From: an uncultured Bacteroidota bacterium
GTDB lineage: Bacteria > Bacteroidota > Bacteroidia > Flavobacteriales > Flavobacteriaceae
DNA: 64,000 nt
Direction of reading: 5' to 3'
NCBI GenBank assembly: GCA_902598295.1
Contig: CACKBA010000001.1
Span: forward strand, 55,498-119,497
Part shown: positions 38,786-46,402 of the stretch, in pieces
Layout of the letters: each line of letters starts with the position of its first letter
Position numbering within the stretch: the first letter of the stretch is position 1
The notes under the pieces: model-generated
Seen by the model: only the letters and a program-made list of their open reading frames with translations
Databases searched by the model: none
Told to the model about the DNA's origin: nothing
Made by a program: the position numbers and the translations under genes

Positions 38786-40048
38786 ATGAGCAAAAAAAAA
38801 GAGAAGAATAATTATTTAGAACCAGGGTTTATTCAAACATTAAAAACGTTTTGTAGAACCAACAAAATTAACTTCGTTGACGACTACAGATTAATAAAAA
38901 AAAGCAAACTAAAAAACACACCTTCATTAAGAGATATTACAAATTTTTTTGGCGGTAACACTGCAGCAAAAAAATATCTTAATGAAAAAATTGGATTAAT
39001 AAAAAGAAATGATTTTGAAAACCCTCAATATATCTACAAAATAAAAGAATGGTGTAATAAAAACAAAATAAAAACAATTAATGATTTTAAACAAAACACA
39101 AACGGTTTTAAAAAGGAAAGAATACCAACCTACCCGAAGTTAAAAAGGATTCTTGGCAATAAAACGAAAGAATTCCTAATTAACAAAATAGAGCTCCTTT
39201 CCTCTTCCTCCAGAGAAAAGTTTTTACAGGAAGAGTTTATAAATAAAATAAAAAAACACCTAACAAAGAACAACATAGTTTATGCTTCTGATTATGATAA
39301 GAAAAGAGATAAAAGTTGGATGCCAACAAGAGAAAGGTTTAGGCAGGTGCTTGGAGCAAATTTCGTTTATAAAAAACTTGGACTAAAAGCAAAAAAAGGA
39401 AAGAACAAAAACTACACAAACATAGAAGACTTAAAAACCCTTCTCAAAAGCGAAGAAATATATTCAGTTATTGAGTATAAATCATTTAAAGAAAAATACG
39501 ACCTATCAAATGAGACACCATTACCACCAACACATATGATTTCAGGAGGTTTTGCAAAACTCTTAGGGTTATCAAAAAAGGAGTTAAAAGAAAAAAAAAT
39601 AAAAAAAACTTATTTTAGTTATAAAACCAAAAATCTAAAAACCACAGACATAAAAGAAAAAAAAATAGAACTTATTACAAAAGACACTTCTTTGGATAGA
39701 TCAAAAAAAATGTACTTGCTTTTAATGTTTTTTGATGAAAACGAAATAACCTATAACCTTGAATCCCTAGCAACACTTGTAAAAGACAATTACCCAAACT
39801 GGAACACTTTTAGAACCAACTACTACACCATAAGAGCAGATTTGATAAACTTAGGGATTATAAAAGGAAAGATTAAACAAATGCACCACATCACCAATGA
39901 AGAGGAAAAGGAAATTATAAGATTATACAAAAAAGGGCACAACCCAACTCAAATTGCAGAATGGATTAGAACAAGTTCTTTGAAGAGAGAAAACTACCCT
40001 GGCGTAGTAAGGGTCTTAAGAAAACACAACTTAATAAAAGAAAAATGA
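38786..40048 (+). CDS. Tandem-repeat putative DNA-binding protein (homing-endonuclease-associated-repeat-like modules plus C-terminal HTHs)
   Basis: Four ~55-60 aa units ending at lG/iGL; C-term ITNEEEKEIIRLYKKGHNPTQIAEWI HTH. Confidence 0.6.
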   Translation: MSKKKEKNNYLEPGFIQTLKTFCRTNKINFVDDYRLIKKSKLKNTPSLRDITNFFGGNTAAKKYLNEKIGLIKRNDFENPQYIYKIKEWCNKNKIKTINDFKQNTNGFKKERIPTYPKLKRILGNKTKEFLINKIELLSSSSREKFLQEEFINKIKKHLTKNNIVYASDYDKKRDKSWMPTRERFRQVLGANFVYKKLGLKAKKGKNKNYTNIEDLKTLLKSEEIYSVIEYKSFKEKYDLSNETPLPPTHMISGGFAKLLGLSKKELKEKKIKKTYFSYKTKNLKTTDIKEKKIELITKDTSLDRSKKMYLLLMFFDENEITYNLESLATLVKDNYPNWNTFRTNYYTIRADLINLGIIKGKIKQMHHITNEEEKEIIRLYKKGHNPTQIAEWIRTSSLKRENYPGVVRVLRKHNLIKEK

Positions 40049-40464
40049 GCACATTTAACAAAGATGTTTTTATGGAAAACATCGCAAACAGACTGAACAT
40101 AGAAAAAGTAGAAAAAAGCGTAAAATATAAATTCTTTAGAAGCGACCTTGACTTTAGTCTGAACTTTTTGCTTACTCAAAAAAAAGAGAGACTAGGTGTG
40201 CATATAATATATCAGTTTACAACAGGCACTTCGTCCAACAAGATACCTTATTTTCTAAACAAGTTTGAGCAAATGCACCATCCAGTGTTGTTAATTTATG
40301 TAGAAGACAGGATTAGACACGGCGAAAGGGCTTCTCACGAAATGATAAATATGGTTATAACCAACAAATATGGTTGCTACATTGATTATGATAATGACGA
40401 ACAAAAAATAAGACAAGGAGAAGAGATATTGTTGGCAAAAATAGAATACCTGCTAAAAATTTAA
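40045..40464 (+). CDS. Small protein resembling a PD-(D/E)XK nuclease core with altered active site
   Basis: ATGA overlap with upstream gene; VHIIYQFTTGTSSNKIPYFLNKFE resembles the EvKyQ..GTaeeKipy.l motif of small nucleases. Confidence 0.35.
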   Translation: MSTFNKDVFMENIANRLNIEKVEKSVKYKFFRSDLDFSLNFLLTQKKERLGVHIIYQFTTGTSSNKIPYFLNKFEQMHHPVLLIYVEDRIRHGERASHEMINMVITNKYGCYIDYDNDEQKIRQGEEILLAKIEYLLKI

Positions 40465-40509
40465 ACCAAAATCAATTTCACAGGGAGATACAAATCAACA
40501 CTACGGTTT

Positions 40510-42159
40510 TTAAACCTTTTCTGTTGACTCAGTTGTGATGCCCAGATCACCGTAGGTCTTTAATTCAAAGTTATAGTTGTTATCATTAGAGTCTTTTTGC
40601 TGGTTTATGTTTTCAATAACACCAGCAGCCCAGGACGGGTGACTAGGCGCAATTAATCGAGCCTGTGACGGACTCGCACTGTTGCCCAACTGCTGTTGAT
40701 CATAAACATAACCATCCCAATACATTTTTAATTGGTAAATATCTAACAATTTACTACACTTCTTTTTTAATTCACACAAGACCACTTCCCCATCGCCATT
40801 AACCATATATAGGTCTAGGTTTCCAATTGATTTCAACGTAGCTAAATCTTTTAACTGTCCAAAAACCGGAAACTGTTCAGTGGCTGTTTTAGGCCCCGAC
40901 CCAGCACTGGCTTCATTAAGGGTTTTTAACTGCTGCATAACCTTCTTTTGCAACACGCTTTCGTTGACCCCACCACCAGTTCCACCGCCACCAGTTCCAC
41001 CGCCACCAGTTCCGCCACCACCAGAATTTGGATCATCATATTTTGGGATGAATTTTACAGGAAATATTGAAGCTATCTTCCTAAGAATCTCTTTGTAGGT
41101 TTTGTCATTTTCAACAAAACCTGTTTTGGTGGTGCTGGTCCTTGGTAAATCAGCCCTCTCTCCAACAATGTCTATTTCCCCCCAAAAAGAGTTAAAGGCG
41201 TTGTTTCTCTTTTTACCCCAAACCTCTTCAAACAAAGACGCGGCAAGCAGCCTTCCGTTTACTCTTATTTCACAACCCTGAGAAGACATGTTATGTTTAT
41301 AATACTTAAACCTTTTTTTACAATCAGCACCGTTGGGGTATTTATAAAAACTATAATCAACACTCAGTTTGCCAACATTAAAACTACCAGGGTTGTCTAA
41401 AGTATCATCCGGATTAGACGGCGTTACAAGTTCTGCGTCTTCGGGAAAAACCTTCTCTAATTTGAAGTTACTGGTCAAATTATTGGATATTGACGTAACT
41501 GTAATGTTAATGTTGTGCTCTTCTAGAAAAGGTCTATAAATCACAGACAACTCTTCTACAAGATCCTTTACTTTCTTGCCAAACTTTGTGCCTCTAGTGG
41601 AAATGCTTTTGAACAAGTCGTATTCACAACCAAAACGGATGTATGTGCCGCCTGGCGTGTTATAATCGCCCGGCCATTTTTCTTTTTTTGTTGATCCTTC
41701 AAAATTTTCATTAGCATTAAAAGTCATTTTCCAAGGCGCTTTTACAATATTAACCAAACCTTTATCATATTCTTCGCTGGTTCTACTATACACCACCCAA
41801 TCATCGTTGTTTTGGTTTGCGGTTGAAAGGGCGTTTTTTAAACCAAACCCATGTTCGTTCAAAAACGAATCTGTTTTGTGCTTCCTGTTCTTCATTCCAA
41901 GATTAAAAGCGTCAGTAAAATCCTTAATTCCAGAACCAGTGTCTTCAATTGTTGTTTCAACCTTATTGTCATTAAGCTTGTGGTTTACTGTAATCTGGAT
42001 GTCTTTTTTGTGGAGCTTTGGGTTAGCCAGAAAGTTTGAGATACTGTTGTCAACCAGTTCACAAAGTAGAGATGTAAAATTAAAGTGGTTTTTTCCAAAA
42101 GACCTCCACATCTCCTGTGACTCAGGCCTTACTTCTATGCTAAACTTTGATTCTGCCAT
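40510..42159 (-). CDS. MORC/MutL-like GHKL ATPase with C-terminal PD-(D/E)XK-like domain
   Basis: CELVDNSISN, EDTGSGI, NEHGFGLKNAL (Bergerat fold); GGGGT linker; LDLYMVNGDGEVVLCELKKK. Confidence 0.75.
   Translation of the reverse strand: MAESKFSIEVRPESQEMWRSFGKNHFNFTSLLCELVDNSISNFLANPKLHKKDIQITVNHKLNDNKVETTIEDTGSGIKDFTDAFNLGMKNRKHKTDSFLNEHGFGLKNALSTANQNNDDWVVYSRTSEEYDKGLVNIVKAPWKMTFNANENFEGSTKKEKWPGDYNTPGGTYIRFGCEYDLFKSISTRGTKFGKKVKDLVEELSVIYRPFLEEHNINITVTSISNNLTSNFKLEKVFPEDAELVTPSNPDDTLDNPGSFNVGKLSVDYSFYKYPNGADCKKRFKYYKHNMSSQGCEIRVNGRLLAASLFEEVWGKKRNNAFNSFWGEIDIVGERADLPRTSTTKTGFVENDKTYKEILRKIASIFPVKFIPKYDDPNSGGGGTGGGGTGGGGTGGGVNESVLQKKVMQQLKTLNEASAGSGPKTATEQFPVFGQLKDLATLKSIGNLDLYMVNGDGEVVLCELKKKCSKLLDIYQLKMYWDGYVYDQQQLGNSASPSQARLIAPSHPSWAAGVIENINQQKDSNDNNYNFELKTYGDLGITTESTEKV
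40968..41023. repeat. 15-bp in-frame minisatellite encoding (GGGGT)n
   Basis: Repeats of accgccaccagttcc on + strand. Confidence 0.9.
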
Positions 42160-42968
42160 TATTTATAAAGTTTATATTTTTTTGGTATCTCTCTCTTTCT
42201 GAGACGCCCCCGTATTAAATTTACATATTTCTTTTGAAGTTCTGCGGTAATAAAGTTTCTTTTTCCATCCACACAAACCTCACATTCAGACCCACTTCCC
42301 CCGAATAAAACCAAAACATTATCCCCAGGTTCCGTACAAGCATATATAAGTTTTTTAGAAACTGCTTTAGGAATTTGAGCAGCGTGAATGGTTTTTTCTT
42401 TACTGACATTCTTCACAAGATTATTTTCAAACCAACTATAAGGCATTCTTCCCTTAGACCCCTCTTTTATCAGCTTTAAAATTCTTTTGTCTTTTGGGTT
42501 TTTATAGGGCTCAGCAACATTATCCCTATAAAACTTGTTTTTTTTAGACTTTGTTATGTGCAGAATGCTTCTGTGAGCACGAGTAAACTTCCTTTTGCTC
42601 ATTCCAAAATTATAAGGATAAACCCAAACATACTCTTCAACCATATGAGCAGCCGAACCAGAAGCCTCAAGACACCTCACCCTTAAGTGGGCATTTGGTT
42701 GGGGATAGTTCATCATCATAATGTTTCCATCAGGCTTTAACACCCTTAAACACTCATCAGTTAGACTTATGTACCAATCTAAATAATCCTCAAACTTGGT
42801 TGTGTAGTTCCTCCCATCATAAACAATGTTTACGTTGTAGTCGGGGTCACCATAAACCATATCAACAGAATTGTCAGGCAACTTTTTCATCAGATCCATG
42901 ACGTCGCAATGGTGCACCTTGTTTATATATTTTTTAGGCAGTTCTTTTGTCACACCTAAATATCGCAA
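42159..42968 (-). CDS. Site-specific DNA methyltransferase, beta-class (N6-adenine/N4-cytosine)
   Basis: N-terminal motif IV VYGDPDYN and C-terminal motif I NVLVLFGGSGSE in beta order. Confidence 0.8.
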   Translation of the reverse strand: MRYLGVTKELPKKYINKVHHCDVMDLMKKLPDNSVDMVYGDPDYNVNIVYDGRNYTTKFEDYLDWYISLTDECLRVLKPDGNIMMMNYPQPNAHLRVRCLEASGSAAHMVEEYVWVYPYNFGMSKRKFTRAHRSILHITKSKKNKFYRDNVAEPYKNPKDKRILKLIKEGSKGRMPYSWFENNLVKNVSKEKTIHAAQIPKAVSKKLIYACTEPGDNVLVLFGGSGSECEVCVDGKRNFITAELQKKYVNLIRGRLRKREIPKKYKLYK

Positions 42969-43004
42969 TTTGATTTAATAAAAACTAATTACAAAAATTG
43001 GACT

Positions 43005-43208
43005 TTACCAACCTATTTTCTTGTCGACAACCTCAACCTCAAACCTAGGGTCCTTGATTTTTCTGTCAATTTTACACCATCCAGACCTTACGTAGATTTG
43101 AGTGGCGCATTCATGAAAAATGATGGAGTTGGTCATTCCAAATCCTACTGGCACCCCCAAGTCCTTAAACCTCACCTTAAACGTAACCTCTCCACTAAAC
43201 CTTGCCAT
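43005..43208 (-). CDS. Hypothetical 67-aa protein
   Basis: ORF upstream of the methyltransferase on the same strand. Confidence 0.5.
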   Translation of the reverse strand: MARFSGEVTFKVRFKDLGVPVGFGMTNSIIFHECATQIYVRSGWCKIDRKIKDPRFEVEVVDKKIGW

Positions 43209-43323
43209 GCCACCTCCCCCTCATCATTTCAGCATAAAGCCGAAGACTTTCTTTGTCAATTGACATTGCTCTTTTTTTTGTGTTTTTCACAAAACGTATT
43301 TGAATTTTTTTATGTTTCTTCAT
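43195..43323 (-). CDS. 42-aa basic peptide candidate
   Basis: MKKHKKIQIRFVKNTKKRAMSIDKESLRLYAEMMRGRWHGKV*; overlaps the start of the 67-aa ORF. Confidence 0.4.
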   Translation of the reverse strand: MKKHKKIQIRFVKNTKKRAMSIDKESLRLYAEMMRGRWHGKV

Positions 43324-43449
43324 TTTATTACAATTTAAATTAAACTGCAACAAGAGAATTTAGGATTTCTCGTTATTTTGGGAGCCCCGCATTCTAAACC
43401 ACCGTGCAACGAGCTGTCGGTTGGTACGCATTTGCGTTCTTGATGCACT

Positions 43450-43457
43450 GCAAATAT
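43450..43457 (-). promoter_or_regulatory. -7 element TATATTTG on minus strand
   Basis: CAAATATA on +; reads toward the 42-aa/67-aa/methyltransferase/GHKL operon. Confidence 0.45.
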
Positions 43458-43551
43458 AGTTTAAAAACAATTAAGGATGTAATAGCAAGCGGTTTCCTGA
43501 ACAGACCGAATAAATATGCTGTAAATTAACTAATTTTATTACATCAAAAAT

Positions 43552-44688
43552 ATAAAGTTCATAGATTTATTCGCTGGCATTGGAGGGTTTCACCAAGCCT
43601 TAAGCAACCTCGGGGGGTATGAATGTGTTTTTGCGTCCGAGATTGATAAAAACGCTGCGGCAGTATACGAAAACAACCACAAACTCAAACCAGCAGGAGA
43701 CATTACAAAAATTGACGCCAAAGACATTCCAAAACATGAACTTTTATGCGCAGGGTTTCCTTGTCAACCATTTTCAATTGGTGGACACAAAAAAGGCTTC
43801 GAAGATACGAGAGGAACCTTGTTTTTTGATATTGCAAGAATAGCAGACCATCACAAAACGCCTTATTTGATTTTAGAAAACGTTCCAAATATTGTTTCTC
43901 ACGACAACGGAAACACCTACAAAACAATTTTAAGAACACTCAAAAAACTAGGATATTCTATTGACGAAAAACCTTTAATCATTAGCCCTCACAACCTTGG
44001 AATTCCCGTCTACAGACCACGCACTTTTTTCTTGTGCGTAAGAGGAGGGGGGTCACCAGTCAAAATAGATGTTCCAAAAGTTAACTTCAAGCCTGACGAG
44101 ATCAGTTCGTACTTCAGGTTTAAAAAAACCAAAGACAAGAGTTTGTACATGAGCGAATATGAATTGAAGGTTTTGAAAATGTGGGACGAGTTCTATAAAC
44201 TTATTGACATAAAAACAGTAGGCTTTCCAATATGGTATAATTCTTTTTTTGAAGACGAAATAGACGAGGACCACCAACCTTGGAAAAAAACCGCTATGAG
44301 AAAAAGCAGAGAGCTTTATCTAAGGAACAAAAAAAAGATTGACATCTGGCGAAAATCATATGAAAACTTAGAATGGGTTGTCCCAACTCATAAAAAATTT
44401 GAGTGGCAATGTGGCGCAGATTGTAAGGGGGTTTTTGACGGCTTGATACAGTTCAGACCGTCAGGAATAAGGGTAAAACGCCTCAATTATTTTAGTACGC
44501 TAGTGGCAATGAATCATCCTCAAATAGTTGGACCAATCGGAAGGAGATTAAGTTCAGACGAAACAAAGCTTTTACAGTCGTTTCCAAAATCATTTAAGCC
44601 TCACGAAAAAAGACCAATAGCACTTAAGCAGTTTGGAAACGCAGTAAACGTTAAGGTTGTCGAATATCTGGTAAAAAAAATGATGTGA
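43552..44688 (+). CDS. DNA (cytosine-5)-methyltransferase; start codon non-canonical or lost
   Basis: (ATA)KFIDLFAGIGGF, GFPCQPFS, ENVPN, RPRTFF, RRLSSDETKLLQSFP, KQFGNAVNVKVVEYL; open from stop at 43531. Confidence 0.88.
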   Translation: MKFIDLFAGIGGFHQALSNLGGYECVFASEIDKNAAAVYENNHKLKPAGDITKIDAKDIPKHELLCAGFPCQPFSIGGHKKGFEDTRGTLFFDIARIADHHKTPYLILENVPNIVSHDNGNTYKTILRTLKKLGYSIDEKPLIISPHNLGIPVYRPRTFFLCVRGGGSPVKIDVPKVNFKPDEISSYFRFKKTKDKSLYMSEYELKVLKMWDEFYKLIDIKTVGFPIWYNSFFEDEIDEDHQPWKKTAMRKSRELYLRNKKKIDIWRKSYENLEWVVPTHKKFEWQCGADCKGVFDGLIQFRPSGIRVKRLNYFSTLVAMNHPQIVGPIGRRLSSDETKLLQSFPKSFKPHEKRPIALKQFGNAVNVKVVEYLVKKMM

Positions 44689-45917
44689 GCAATAGAAAAA
44701 AAACAAACGAACCCCGAACCCCAGACCTCACAAAATCACAAAAACAATTCTTCGAATTTTTTAGCAAACTCGGGGAAGTAAAAAAAAAGAGACCAGGAAT
44801 ATTGTTCAAAACACAAAACGCAGAGCACTTAATTTTATTTAAAAACGTTACCTATTTAGGGCACCCACACCCCTTTTTCAAAAAAAGAATTCAAATCCCA
44901 GGAACCTGGAAAGTGCACATGTCTAGCCCAAAAACCATTATCCTAGGCGTCTATACTCAAACGAAACAAAAAGAAGACGAGTTAATTGTGGTTTACGCAA
45001 ACGCAGATTTTGTAAACAAGAAAGCAAATAACTCTTCTGCACATATTTACACTAGCGACTTGAAAAAAGCAGATTCAGAAGGGTACTTCAGTAAGGTCGA
45101 TAAAAAAAACAACTTTGTCCAGGTTTTCAAAAAAAACGAATTTGTCAAATTCATTAAAAACCTATCAAAAGACACAAATAAAACACTTACTCTAAACGAC
45201 CAAAAAGAATGGTACCAAAACTTTTCAGACAAGTTTTATCAAAAAAACATAAAAACAAACCCTAAAAAGGTGTGTATGGATTACGCAAAAACCATCTTAA
45301 ACAAGAACTGGAACGGAAAAACAGCATACAATGAAATGGTCAAAGCAAATTACCGAAACATGCTACAAGCAGAGTGGCCGGGTTTTTACAATGAGTTTCT
45401 TTTTGAAAAATTCATAAAAAGAGAAAGTCATGACAAGACCGTTAGCGTGCACAGCAAAGATACAGAATTAGATCTCGACCTTACTTTTTTAAAAAACACG
45501 GAAAAAGTTTTTCTTGGGGATTTGAAAACTCACACAACAGCAACGGGGGCAATAATAACCAATGACCAAAATGTTATTGACAAGGCAGTTAAAAAATATG
45601 GAAAGGTTTGGTTTTTTGTGGTTGAGCACGATACAGAAAAAGACATAGACCATGAGCTTATAGTCAGAGACCATTGGAATAAACTAAAAAAAGAGAAAGG
45701 AGTAGGAAACCCCACTGCCAACTACGCCAACAGAATGAAAAATAACGTAACAATAAAAAACGTATTAATTCTTGAGATTACCACTGACAACCACCGGTAT
45801 TTATCAGACTTTCAAAGAGGCATGTTAAACAGCAACGGCACACCAAGAGCGCCGAAATATAAAATCAACAAAAAAGACATTGAACACTTCGTTTACTATA
45901 GATTAAAGGGTGATTAA
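44685..45917 (+). CDS. Putative type II restriction endonuclease (PD-(D/E)XK-like)
   Basis: GTGA overlap with C5-MTase; NEFLFEKFI...ELDLDLTFLKNTEKVFLGDLKTH. Confidence 0.65.
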   Translation: MSNRKKTNEPRTPDLTKSQKQFFEFFSKLGEVKKKRPGILFKTQNAEHLILFKNVTYLGHPHPFFKKRIQIPGTWKVHMSSPKTIILGVYTQTKQKEDELIVVYANADFVNKKANNSSAHIYTSDLKKADSEGYFSKVDKKNNFVQVFKKNEFVKFIKNLSKDTNKTLTLNDQKEWYQNFSDKFYQKNIKTNPKKVCMDYAKTILNKNWNGKTAYNEMVKANYRNMLQAEWPGFYNEFLFEKFIKRESHDKTVSVHSKDTELDLDLTFLKNTEKVFLGDLKTHTTATGAIITNDQNVIDKAVKKYGKVWFFVVEHDTEKDIDHELIVRDHWNKLKKEKGVGNPTANYANRMKNNVTIKNVLILEITTDNHRYLSDFQRGMLNSNGTPRAPKYKINKKDIEHFVYYRLKGD

Positions 45918-46090: not shown

Positions 46091-46402
46091 CTATTCAATT
46101 ACCTTCAAATCTATTAAGCCACCTAATTTAATTTCCCTGACCTCACCTGTTATAGCATTGATGCAATAAACCCTATTTCTACCATCATCAGTAGGATTTT
46201 GAATAGACCAAACATGGCTTTCGGGAATTGAGTATTGAGATGAATTATATGTTTTTTCACTAGTAAAACCAGTGATAATTGAGATAAAACCTATAACAGC
46301 AAAAAGGCCAATTGTTATTTCTTTGATATTTTTCATTGTATTATTATTTAAGTTATTAATACAATTTACACATATCCAAACTCTATTTAACTCCAGAATC
46401 AA
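46091..46402 (-). CDS. Hypothetical protein (likely start at internal Met, ~46336)
   Basis: MKNIKEITIGLFAVIGFISIITGF TM start. Confidence 0.5.
   Translation of the reverse strand: MILELNRVWICVNCINNLNNNTMKNIKEITIGLFAVIGFISIITGFTSEKTYNSSQYSIPESHVWSIQNPTDDGRNRVYCINAITGEVREIKLGGLIDLKVIE

What the first reader, a model, noticed from the sequence alone, without database searches (positions are those of the whole stretch)
38786..45917. Compact composite R-M/defence-type island between a CAP-domain gene and rnpA
Seven or eight ORFs in ~7 kb, almost all nucleic-acid-related: repeat/HTH protein + small nuclease-like protein (+ strand), convergent with a beta-class MTase + GHKL ATPase-nuclease operon (- strand), then a C5-MTase + putative endonuclease (+ strand). 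ATGA, TAATG and GTGA overlaps indicate coupled translation within each module. Housekeeping genes flank both sides. Two MTases of different chemistry next to three nuclease-like ORFs suggests at least two R-M-type modules, possibly interlocked.
Basis: partly seen in the sequence, partly recalled or inferred. Interest (0 to 1): 0.75.

Follow-up and report, generated by a model that had tools for sequence, protein, structure and literature searches.

The report
R-M hotspot around a SAM riboswitch
The same kind of switch-plus-small-protein unit recurs next to restriction systems or integrases in related bacteria.

Summary
The island is real and is a restriction-modification (R-M) hotspot. It holds (i) a beta-class N6/N4 MTase coupled by a TAATG overlap to a paraMORC3-like GHKL-ATPase/PD-(D/E)XK nuclease, (ii) a C5-MTase plus an MTaX1-type REase, and (iii) an orphan HTH-repeat protein plus PDDEXK_11 pair with no homologue found. 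In five other genus genomes the site next to rnpA carries other R-M systems (four) or none (one). Nine genus genomes without the cassette there have none.

Of 23 genus genomes, all six with an intact cassette carry a DNA MTase within 1.5 kb, at two different loci; one of the other 17 has one. Across the family, SAM-I/IV switches in front of a transporter are never near MTases or integrases (0/17). Those not in front of it often are (15/29: ten R-M/DISARM, five integrase).

R-M and hotspot: firm. Whether the switch controls the R-M operon, and what the small proteins do, is open. I rate it a new variant of a known kind.

The parts
38786..40048 (+). 420-aa basic protein: about four imperfect ~65-aa repeats, then a C-terminal helix-turn-helix-like end
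   Evidence: Repeats: r1-r2, r1-r3, r2-r3 and r1-r4 beat all 300 shuffles; r2-r4 and r3-r4 do not. No family match above cut-off; no relative in phages, plasmids or viral contigs, one marginal hit in 200 family genomes
40045..40464 (+). 139-aa PD-(D/E)XK-like protein (PDDEXK_11), ATGA-coupled to the previous gene; catalytic status uncertain
   Evidence: Pfam 24.7 bits vs cut-off 23.7; no relatives found
40510..42159 (-). GHKL ATPase + Gly-rich (GGGGT)n linker + C-terminal PD-(D/E)XK-like nuclease; paraMORC3-like restriction subunit
   Evidence: HATPase_c_3 4e-8; N/G1/G2 motifs ELVDNS, DTGSGI, EHGFGLKNA and nuclease motif D..ELKK..QLKMYWD; 29-34% identical homologues; literature match PMC2292703
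42159..42953 (-). beta-class N6/N4 DNA methyltransferase (DPDY variant of motif IV, FGGSG motif I), probable GTG start
   Evidence: PF01555 9e-35, PADLOC PDLC03337 5.9e-92; 80-82% identical homologue L004/L129
43005..43208 (-). sORF2, 67 aa, conserved small protein of unknown function
   Evidence: 9 of 348 relatives, every one with the riboswitch directly upstream
43195..43323 (-). sORF1, 42 aa, conserved small basic protein overlapping sORF2
   Evidence: Conserved in G021, G009, G019, G012, order-swapped in G017, and behind a riboswitch in another genus (G559/L151)
43338..43451 (-). SAM-I/IV riboswitch aptamer (Rfam hit 43364-43451) plus the 3' strand of P1
   Evidence: RF01725 51.9 bits; only copy in the genome; P1 and pseudoknot covariation; TAnnTTTG-type promoter just upstream (inference)
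43552..44688 (+). C5 cytosine DNA methyltransferase, motifs I, IV, VI, VIII, X intact, apparent ATA start codon
   Evidence: PF00145 2e-74; frame and motifs
44685..45917 (+). Type II-like restriction endonuclease with N-terminal MTaX1 domain, GTGA-coupled to the C5-MTase
   Evidence: MTaX1 1e-19, PADLOC REase_II PDLC03409 9e-40

Best explanation
This is an R-M integration hotspot beside rnpA. It is built around a resident cassette: promoter - SAM-I/IV riboswitch - sORF1 - sORF2. Two independent R-M systems flank the cassette. Downstream on the same strand is a beta-class MTase with a GHKL-ATPase/nuclease as restriction subunit. Divergently upstream is a C5-MTase with an MTaX1 REase. A third HTH-repeat/PDDEXK pair sits at the far edge. 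Shown: the domains, the riboswitch structure, the conservation of the small ORFs and the turnover of R-M systems at the site. Inferred: each MTase protects host sites and its partner cuts unmethylated DNA, the GHKL protein by ATP-driven looping or clamping coupled to its nuclease domain. Also inferred: when SAM is scarce the riboswitch (an OFF switch, as in its superfamily) releases the small ORFs. Because no terminator separates sORF2 from the MTase here, read-through would also raise the MTase-GHKL operon at low SAM (this last step about 0.35 likely).
For: Family matches and motifs. Riboswitch: 51.9 bits, 93.5% of cells paired with changes on both sides of four pairs. R-M turnover at the same site: G021 two C5-MTases + REase, G009 C5-MTase + REase (PDLC03479 9e-187), G012 type I + DUF262-like gene, G019 a C5-MTase downstream, G007 nearly empty. 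Nine genus genomes without the cassette at this site have no R-M between GNAT and rnpA. Terminator hairpins follow sORF2 in G009, G012 and G007 but not in G000 or G019, where an MTase follows directly. Relatives of this MTase pair with a classical REase (PDLC03513) instead of a GHKL protein, so R subunits have been exchanged.
Against: No transcript or methylome data. G000 and G019 share a 28-base element (TTTTTATTAAAT..AATT.CGATATTTA) just before their MTase starts; it may be a separate promoter, in which case the riboswitch need not control the MTase. The C5-MTase lacks a normal start codon. The catalytic residues of the PDDEXK_11 protein are not clear. The genome is a 75%-complete MAG.
Confidence: 0.77

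Rival explanations
1. Functional-partner reading: the SAM riboswitch and its small proteins belong to the defence island. They sense SAM depletion, which leaves host DNA under-methylated or signals a phage SAM-degrading enzyme, and then restrain restriction or trigger a back-up response.
For: Genus: all 6 genomes with an intact cassette have a DNA MTase within 1.5 kb, at two different loci (rnpA and tRNA-Met); 1 of the other 17 has one (Fisher 7e-5, not corrected for relatedness). Family: transporter-type SAM-I/IV loci 0/17 near MTase or integrase; other SAM-I/IV loci 10/29 near R-M or DISARM and 5/29 near integrases. G007 has no R-M there, a frameshifted sORF2 and no sORF1. Phage SAM-degrading enzymes as counter-defence against R-M are known (PMC7877911, abstract).
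Against: G492 and G536 carry riboswitch-sORF2 with no R-M within 5 kb. The downstream proteins fall into several unrelated families, so no single effector is implied. G016 has R-M without the cassette. Shared residence in hypervariable sites explains much of the pattern.
Confidence: 0.2
2. Bystander reading: the riboswitch cassette is an ordinary methionine/SAM-homeostasis accessory operon that happens to sit in plastic regions where R-M systems also land. (This is compatible with the best explanation; it says the two have no functional tie.)
For: G492 and G536 lack R-M in cis. SAM-I/IV in this family often controls a NhaC-type transporter. Five other cassettes sit beside integrases, not R-M. 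A terminator isolates the cassette in several genomes.
Against: In G017 the cassette lies with R-M in a different site that is empty in the relative G020, so the two may travel together. Presence tracks R-M within the genus.
Confidence: 0.45
3. The whole 38786-45917 interval is one multi-part defence system acting together.
For: Compact, coupled ORFs; nearly all parts nucleic-acid-related.
Against: Other genomes carry single, unrelated R-M systems at the site; GHKL homologues occur without the other genes; this MTase has other partners elsewhere.
Confidence: 0.04

Closest known systems
paraMORC3 GHKL-S5-RE-fold proteins in R-M operons (Iyer, Abhiman and Aravind 2008, PMC2292703)
   Same: GHKL ATPase with C-terminal PD-(D/E)XK-like domain; Bacteroidetes; beside a DNA methylase or standalone
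   Different: Minimal two-gene pair with a beta-class N6/N4 MTase, no helicase; Gly-rich (GGGGT)n hinge; the family assignment rests on the published description, not on a profile
Type II R-M with C5-MTase + MTaX1 REase (PADLOC PDLC03272 / PDLC03409)
   Same: MTase and REase domain content and coupled order
   Different: Apparent ATA start codon of the MTase; REase only distantly related to the profile
SAM-I/IV riboswitch RF01725 (Weinberg 2010, PMC2864571)
   Same: Aptamer core, P1-P3 and pseudoknot; marine bacteria
   Different: Stands before two unknown small proteins in an R-M hotspot rather than before a transporter or methionine genes
Chromosomal defence hotspots / genomic plasticity regions
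   Same: Different defence cargo between the same housekeeping neighbours; one near-empty site
   Different: A metabolite-riboswitch cassette is the constant element of the occupied site

Membership tests
SAM-I/IV riboswitch (RF01725) | Covariance-model score over the curated cut-off | tested here: met
   51.9 vs 41.1 bits; 8 of 23 genus genomes over cut-off
SAM-I/IV riboswitch (RF01725) | Conserved P1-P3 helices and pseudoknot with compensatory changes | tested here: met
   26 pairs, 93.5% of cells paired; changes on both sides in P1 and the pseudoknot; slid controls 27-47%
SAM-I/IV riboswitch (RF01725) | Binds SAM and regulates the downstream gene | not testable with these tools
   Needs in-line probing and a reporter assay
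Type II-like R-M, beta-MTase module | MTase with SAM-binding and catalytic motifs | tested here: met
   PF01555 9e-35; DPDY at 41 and FGGSG at 222, same variant in homologues
Type II-like R-M, beta-MTase module | Adjacent cognate endonuclease of the same specificity | tested here: inconclusive
   GHKL-nuclease adjacent and coupled, but homologous MTases use a different REase; specificity not testable
paraMORC3 | N-terminal GHKL domain with N, G1, G2 motifs | tested here: met
   HATPase_c_3 4e-8; ELVDNS, DTGSGI, EHGFGLKNA
paraMORC3 | C-terminal RE-fold domain with E-D-ExK | tested here: inconclusive
   D..ELKK..QLKMYWD present and shared with L064; fold not modelled
Type II R-M, C5-MTase module | C5-MTase motifs I, IV, VI, VIII, X | tested here: met
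   FIDLFAGIGGF, GFPCQPFS, ENVPNI, YRPRTF, GNAVN
Type II R-M, C5-MTase module | Adjacent REase | tested here: met
   PDLC03409 9e-40 and MTaX1 1e-19
Defence hotspot | Same flanking genes, variable cargo, empty site in relatives | tested here: met
   G007 near-empty; G009, G012, G019 and G021 different R-M; nine other genus genomes without R-M there
DISARM / Druantia | DrmA/DrmB or DruE helicases with the MTase | tested here: not met
   No such genes in the interval; the DruM/DrmM hits of the C5-MTase are generic

The most novel reading that the evidence does not exclude
Flavobacteria carry a mobile class of SAM-riboswitch-controlled small-protein cassettes that functionally accompany SAM-consuming defence systems (R-M, DISARM): an RNA sensor of SAM depletion that adjusts restriction or fires a back-up response when SAM falls, for example through a phage SAM-degrading enzyme.
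Probability: 0.15. Interest if true: 0.87.

Novelty: new variant of a known kind. Interest (0 to 1): 0.53.

Why it matters
R-M systems depend on SAM, yet no metabolite-sensing RNA has, as far as the paper searches here show, been tied to them. A riboswitch cassette that recurs beside R-M, DISARM and integrases in several genera makes a direct question testable: do hosts or mobile elements read SAM levels to manage DNA methylation and restriction? It also supplies several short, conserved, unannotated protein families with a predicted regulator and a genomic context.

Tried and rejected
Phage or plasmid origin of sORF2: no match in phages, plasmids or viral contigs; no exact match of the riboswitch core in viral contigs. 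sORF2 fold: AlphaFold model weak (pLDDT 63) and Foldseek gave nothing, so no function is read from it. Solved-structure hits to the GHKL protein are to its Gly-rich linker (scFv linkers) and were discarded. HTH-repeat and PDDEXK pair: no relatives in plasmids or viral contigs, none of the HTH-repeat protein in phages; one weak hit in G508 was not followed. First C5 profile was contaminated with a REase through an ORF-lookup slip; rebuilt and rerun. DISARM membership of the window: rejected, no drm genes. The single genome-contig scan went to the MTase and found one relative.
Full report
OBSERVATION. The ORFs and overlaps described are present. Domain searches give an N6/N4 MTase (PF01555 9e-35; PADLOC MTase_II 5.9e-92), a GHKL ATPase, a C5-MTase (2e-74), an MTaX1-type REase (1e-19; PADLOC REase_II 9e-40) and a marginal PDDEXK_11 protein (2e-5, 24.7 vs 23.7 bits). 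Catalytic motifs of both MTases and the N/G1/G2 motifs of the GHKL protein are intact. The GHKL protein's C-terminus carries D..ELKK..QLKMYWD. The same block occurs in a 34% identical protein in an integrative element (L064: DLY..EGKKD..QLKMYWD). The domain order matches paraMORC3 as described by Iyer et al. 2008 (PMC2292703), including the note that some members stand alone; Lactiplantibacillus plasmid homologues also have no MTase beside them, one lying near a Sau3AI-type REase gene.

WHAT WAS MISSED. Between the two MTase modules lies a SAM-I/IV riboswitch (43364-43451, minus strand; 51.9 bits against a cut-off of 41.1), the only one found in the genome. It is followed by two small ORFs, 42 and 67 aa. 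An alignment of ten such RNAs supports P1-P3 and the pseudoknot: 93.5% of cells paired, changes on both sides of four pairs, slid controls 27-47%. The 67-aa protein is found in 9 of 348 relatives, always with the riboswitch directly upstream. The 42-aa protein is conserved in five genus genomes, lies after the 67-aa gene in G017 (order swapped) and recurs behind a riboswitch in another genus (G559). Conservation in two gene orders argues that both are real proteins.

SYNTENY. In the genus, the order RNase R - RpiB - GNAT - (CAP or another secreted protein) - X - rnpA is kept. In the clade with the window's genome, X holds the cassette plus different R-M systems. G021 has two C5-MTases and a REase, G009 a C5-MTase and a REase (PDLC03479 9e-187), G012 a type I system with a DUF262-like gene, and G019 a C5-MTase downstream of the cassette. 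G007 has no R-M, a frameshifted sORF2 and no sORF1. The G007 frameshift is in an A-run and could be an assembly error; G492 and G536 also lack sORF1. G019's GNAT side is not on its contig. Nine genus genomes without the cassette at this site have other genes or almost nothing between GNAT and rnpA, and no R-M. G017 carries the cassette elsewhere: between AddB and a PorP-like gene with a REase and a double C5-MTase. In its relative G020 that site holds only a tRNA-Met-like sequence (read from the sequence, not run through ARAGORN), and in G016 another R-M without the cassette.

PRESENCE TEST. Strong DNA MTases were sought in all 23 genus genomes (type I HsdM not searched genome-wide). The six with an intact cassette all have one, within 1.5 kb of the riboswitch (the adjacent one of G012 is its type I HsdM). 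Of the other 17, only G016 has one. Fisher gives 7e-5. This ignores relatedness, and the genomes are incomplete. Outside the genus, G492 and G536 carry riboswitch-sORF2 without R-M nearby but have N6/N4 MTases elsewhere. The MTase of G492 is the 80-82% identical homologue of the window's MTase.

FAMILY CONTROL. RF01725 occurs in 42 of 301 sampled family genomes. Where it precedes a NhaC-type transporter (17 loci), no MTase or integrase lies within 7 kb. At 29 loci where it does not, a DNA MTase lies within 3 kb in nine, DISARM drmA/drmB plus Vsr in one, and a tyrosine integrase within 2 kb in five others. Fisher 2e-4; with the genus's rnpA site counted once, 9e-4 for both classes together and 0.03 for defence alone. 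The layouts at G797 (C5-MTase divergent from the riboswitch) and G470 (riboswitch - two small genes - HTH - two C5-MTases, one strand) resemble the window's two sides. Limits: the integrase profile was built from those same loci plus one, the classification was made after looking, some riboswitch hits were not examined, and several contigs end early. The downstream small proteins form several unrelated families shared between genera; those tested have no Pfam match over cut-off.

MECHANISM. Most likely each MTase marks host sites and its neighbour cuts unmarked DNA. Relatives of the beta-MTase use a classical REase (PDLC03513), so the GHKL-nuclease looks like a swapped restriction subunit. Its ATPase and hinge suggest ATP-driven looping or clamping before cleavage (inference after Iyer et al.). 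The riboswitch should be an OFF switch at high SAM (general knowledge of the SAM-I superfamily). A terminator hairpin follows sORF2 in G009, G012 and G007 but not in G000 or G019, where an MTase follows directly, so read-through could tie the MTase operon to SAM. Against that, G000 and G019 share a 28-base element just before the MTase start, matched without mismatch only in these two genus genomes, which may be a local promoter. I put riboswitch control of the MTase operon at about 0.35.

VERDICT. An ordinary kind of locus (an R-M hotspot) with an unusual constant element. The R-M part is well supported. The recurring link between SAM-riboswitch small-protein cassettes and SAM-dependent defence or mobile elements was not found in the papers searched. 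It is correlative, from small numbers, and the functions of the small proteins are unknown.

Noticed in passing
43552: The C5-MTase frame opens with (M)KFIDLFAGIGG at an ATA codon with no ATG/GTG/TTG upstream; sORF2 of G536 (L031/L034) also reads ATA where relatives have ATG. Rare AUA starts, or substitutions in MAG consensus.
   Followed up: partly
about 40950-41030: The GHKL protein carries a natural (GGGGT)n linker, so like engineered scFv linkers that PDB searches return antibodies.
   Followed up: no
L103:11959-12138 (G020), L022, L107, L108: A second R-M/integrase hotspot of the genus at a tRNA-Met-like gene between AddB and a PorP-like gene: empty in G020, R-M in G016 and G017, tyrosine integrase in G012.
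   Followed up: partly
L107:6787-7182 and L022:10834-11232: A 133-aa membrane-protein-like gene is 96% identical between G016 and G017 although neighbouring housekeeping proteins differ far more: probably recent transfer with R-M cargo.
   Followed up: no
L119, L125, L126, L127, L130, L117 (small ORFs near the riboswitch): A ~90-aa protein family (GW.G.R..YL.AL type, two subgroups) recurs behind SAM-I/IV riboswitches in several genera; a ~240-aa family (MKTVFTKxEGV) does so in L117, L121 and L122.
   Followed up: partly
L035-L061: In many family genomes SAM-I/IV precedes a ~435-aa NhaC-type transporter, probably a methionine or related transporter.
   Followed up: no
window 46091-46402: 103-aa unannotated ORF between the island and rnpA, TM-like stretch near its start, no family match.
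   Followed up: no
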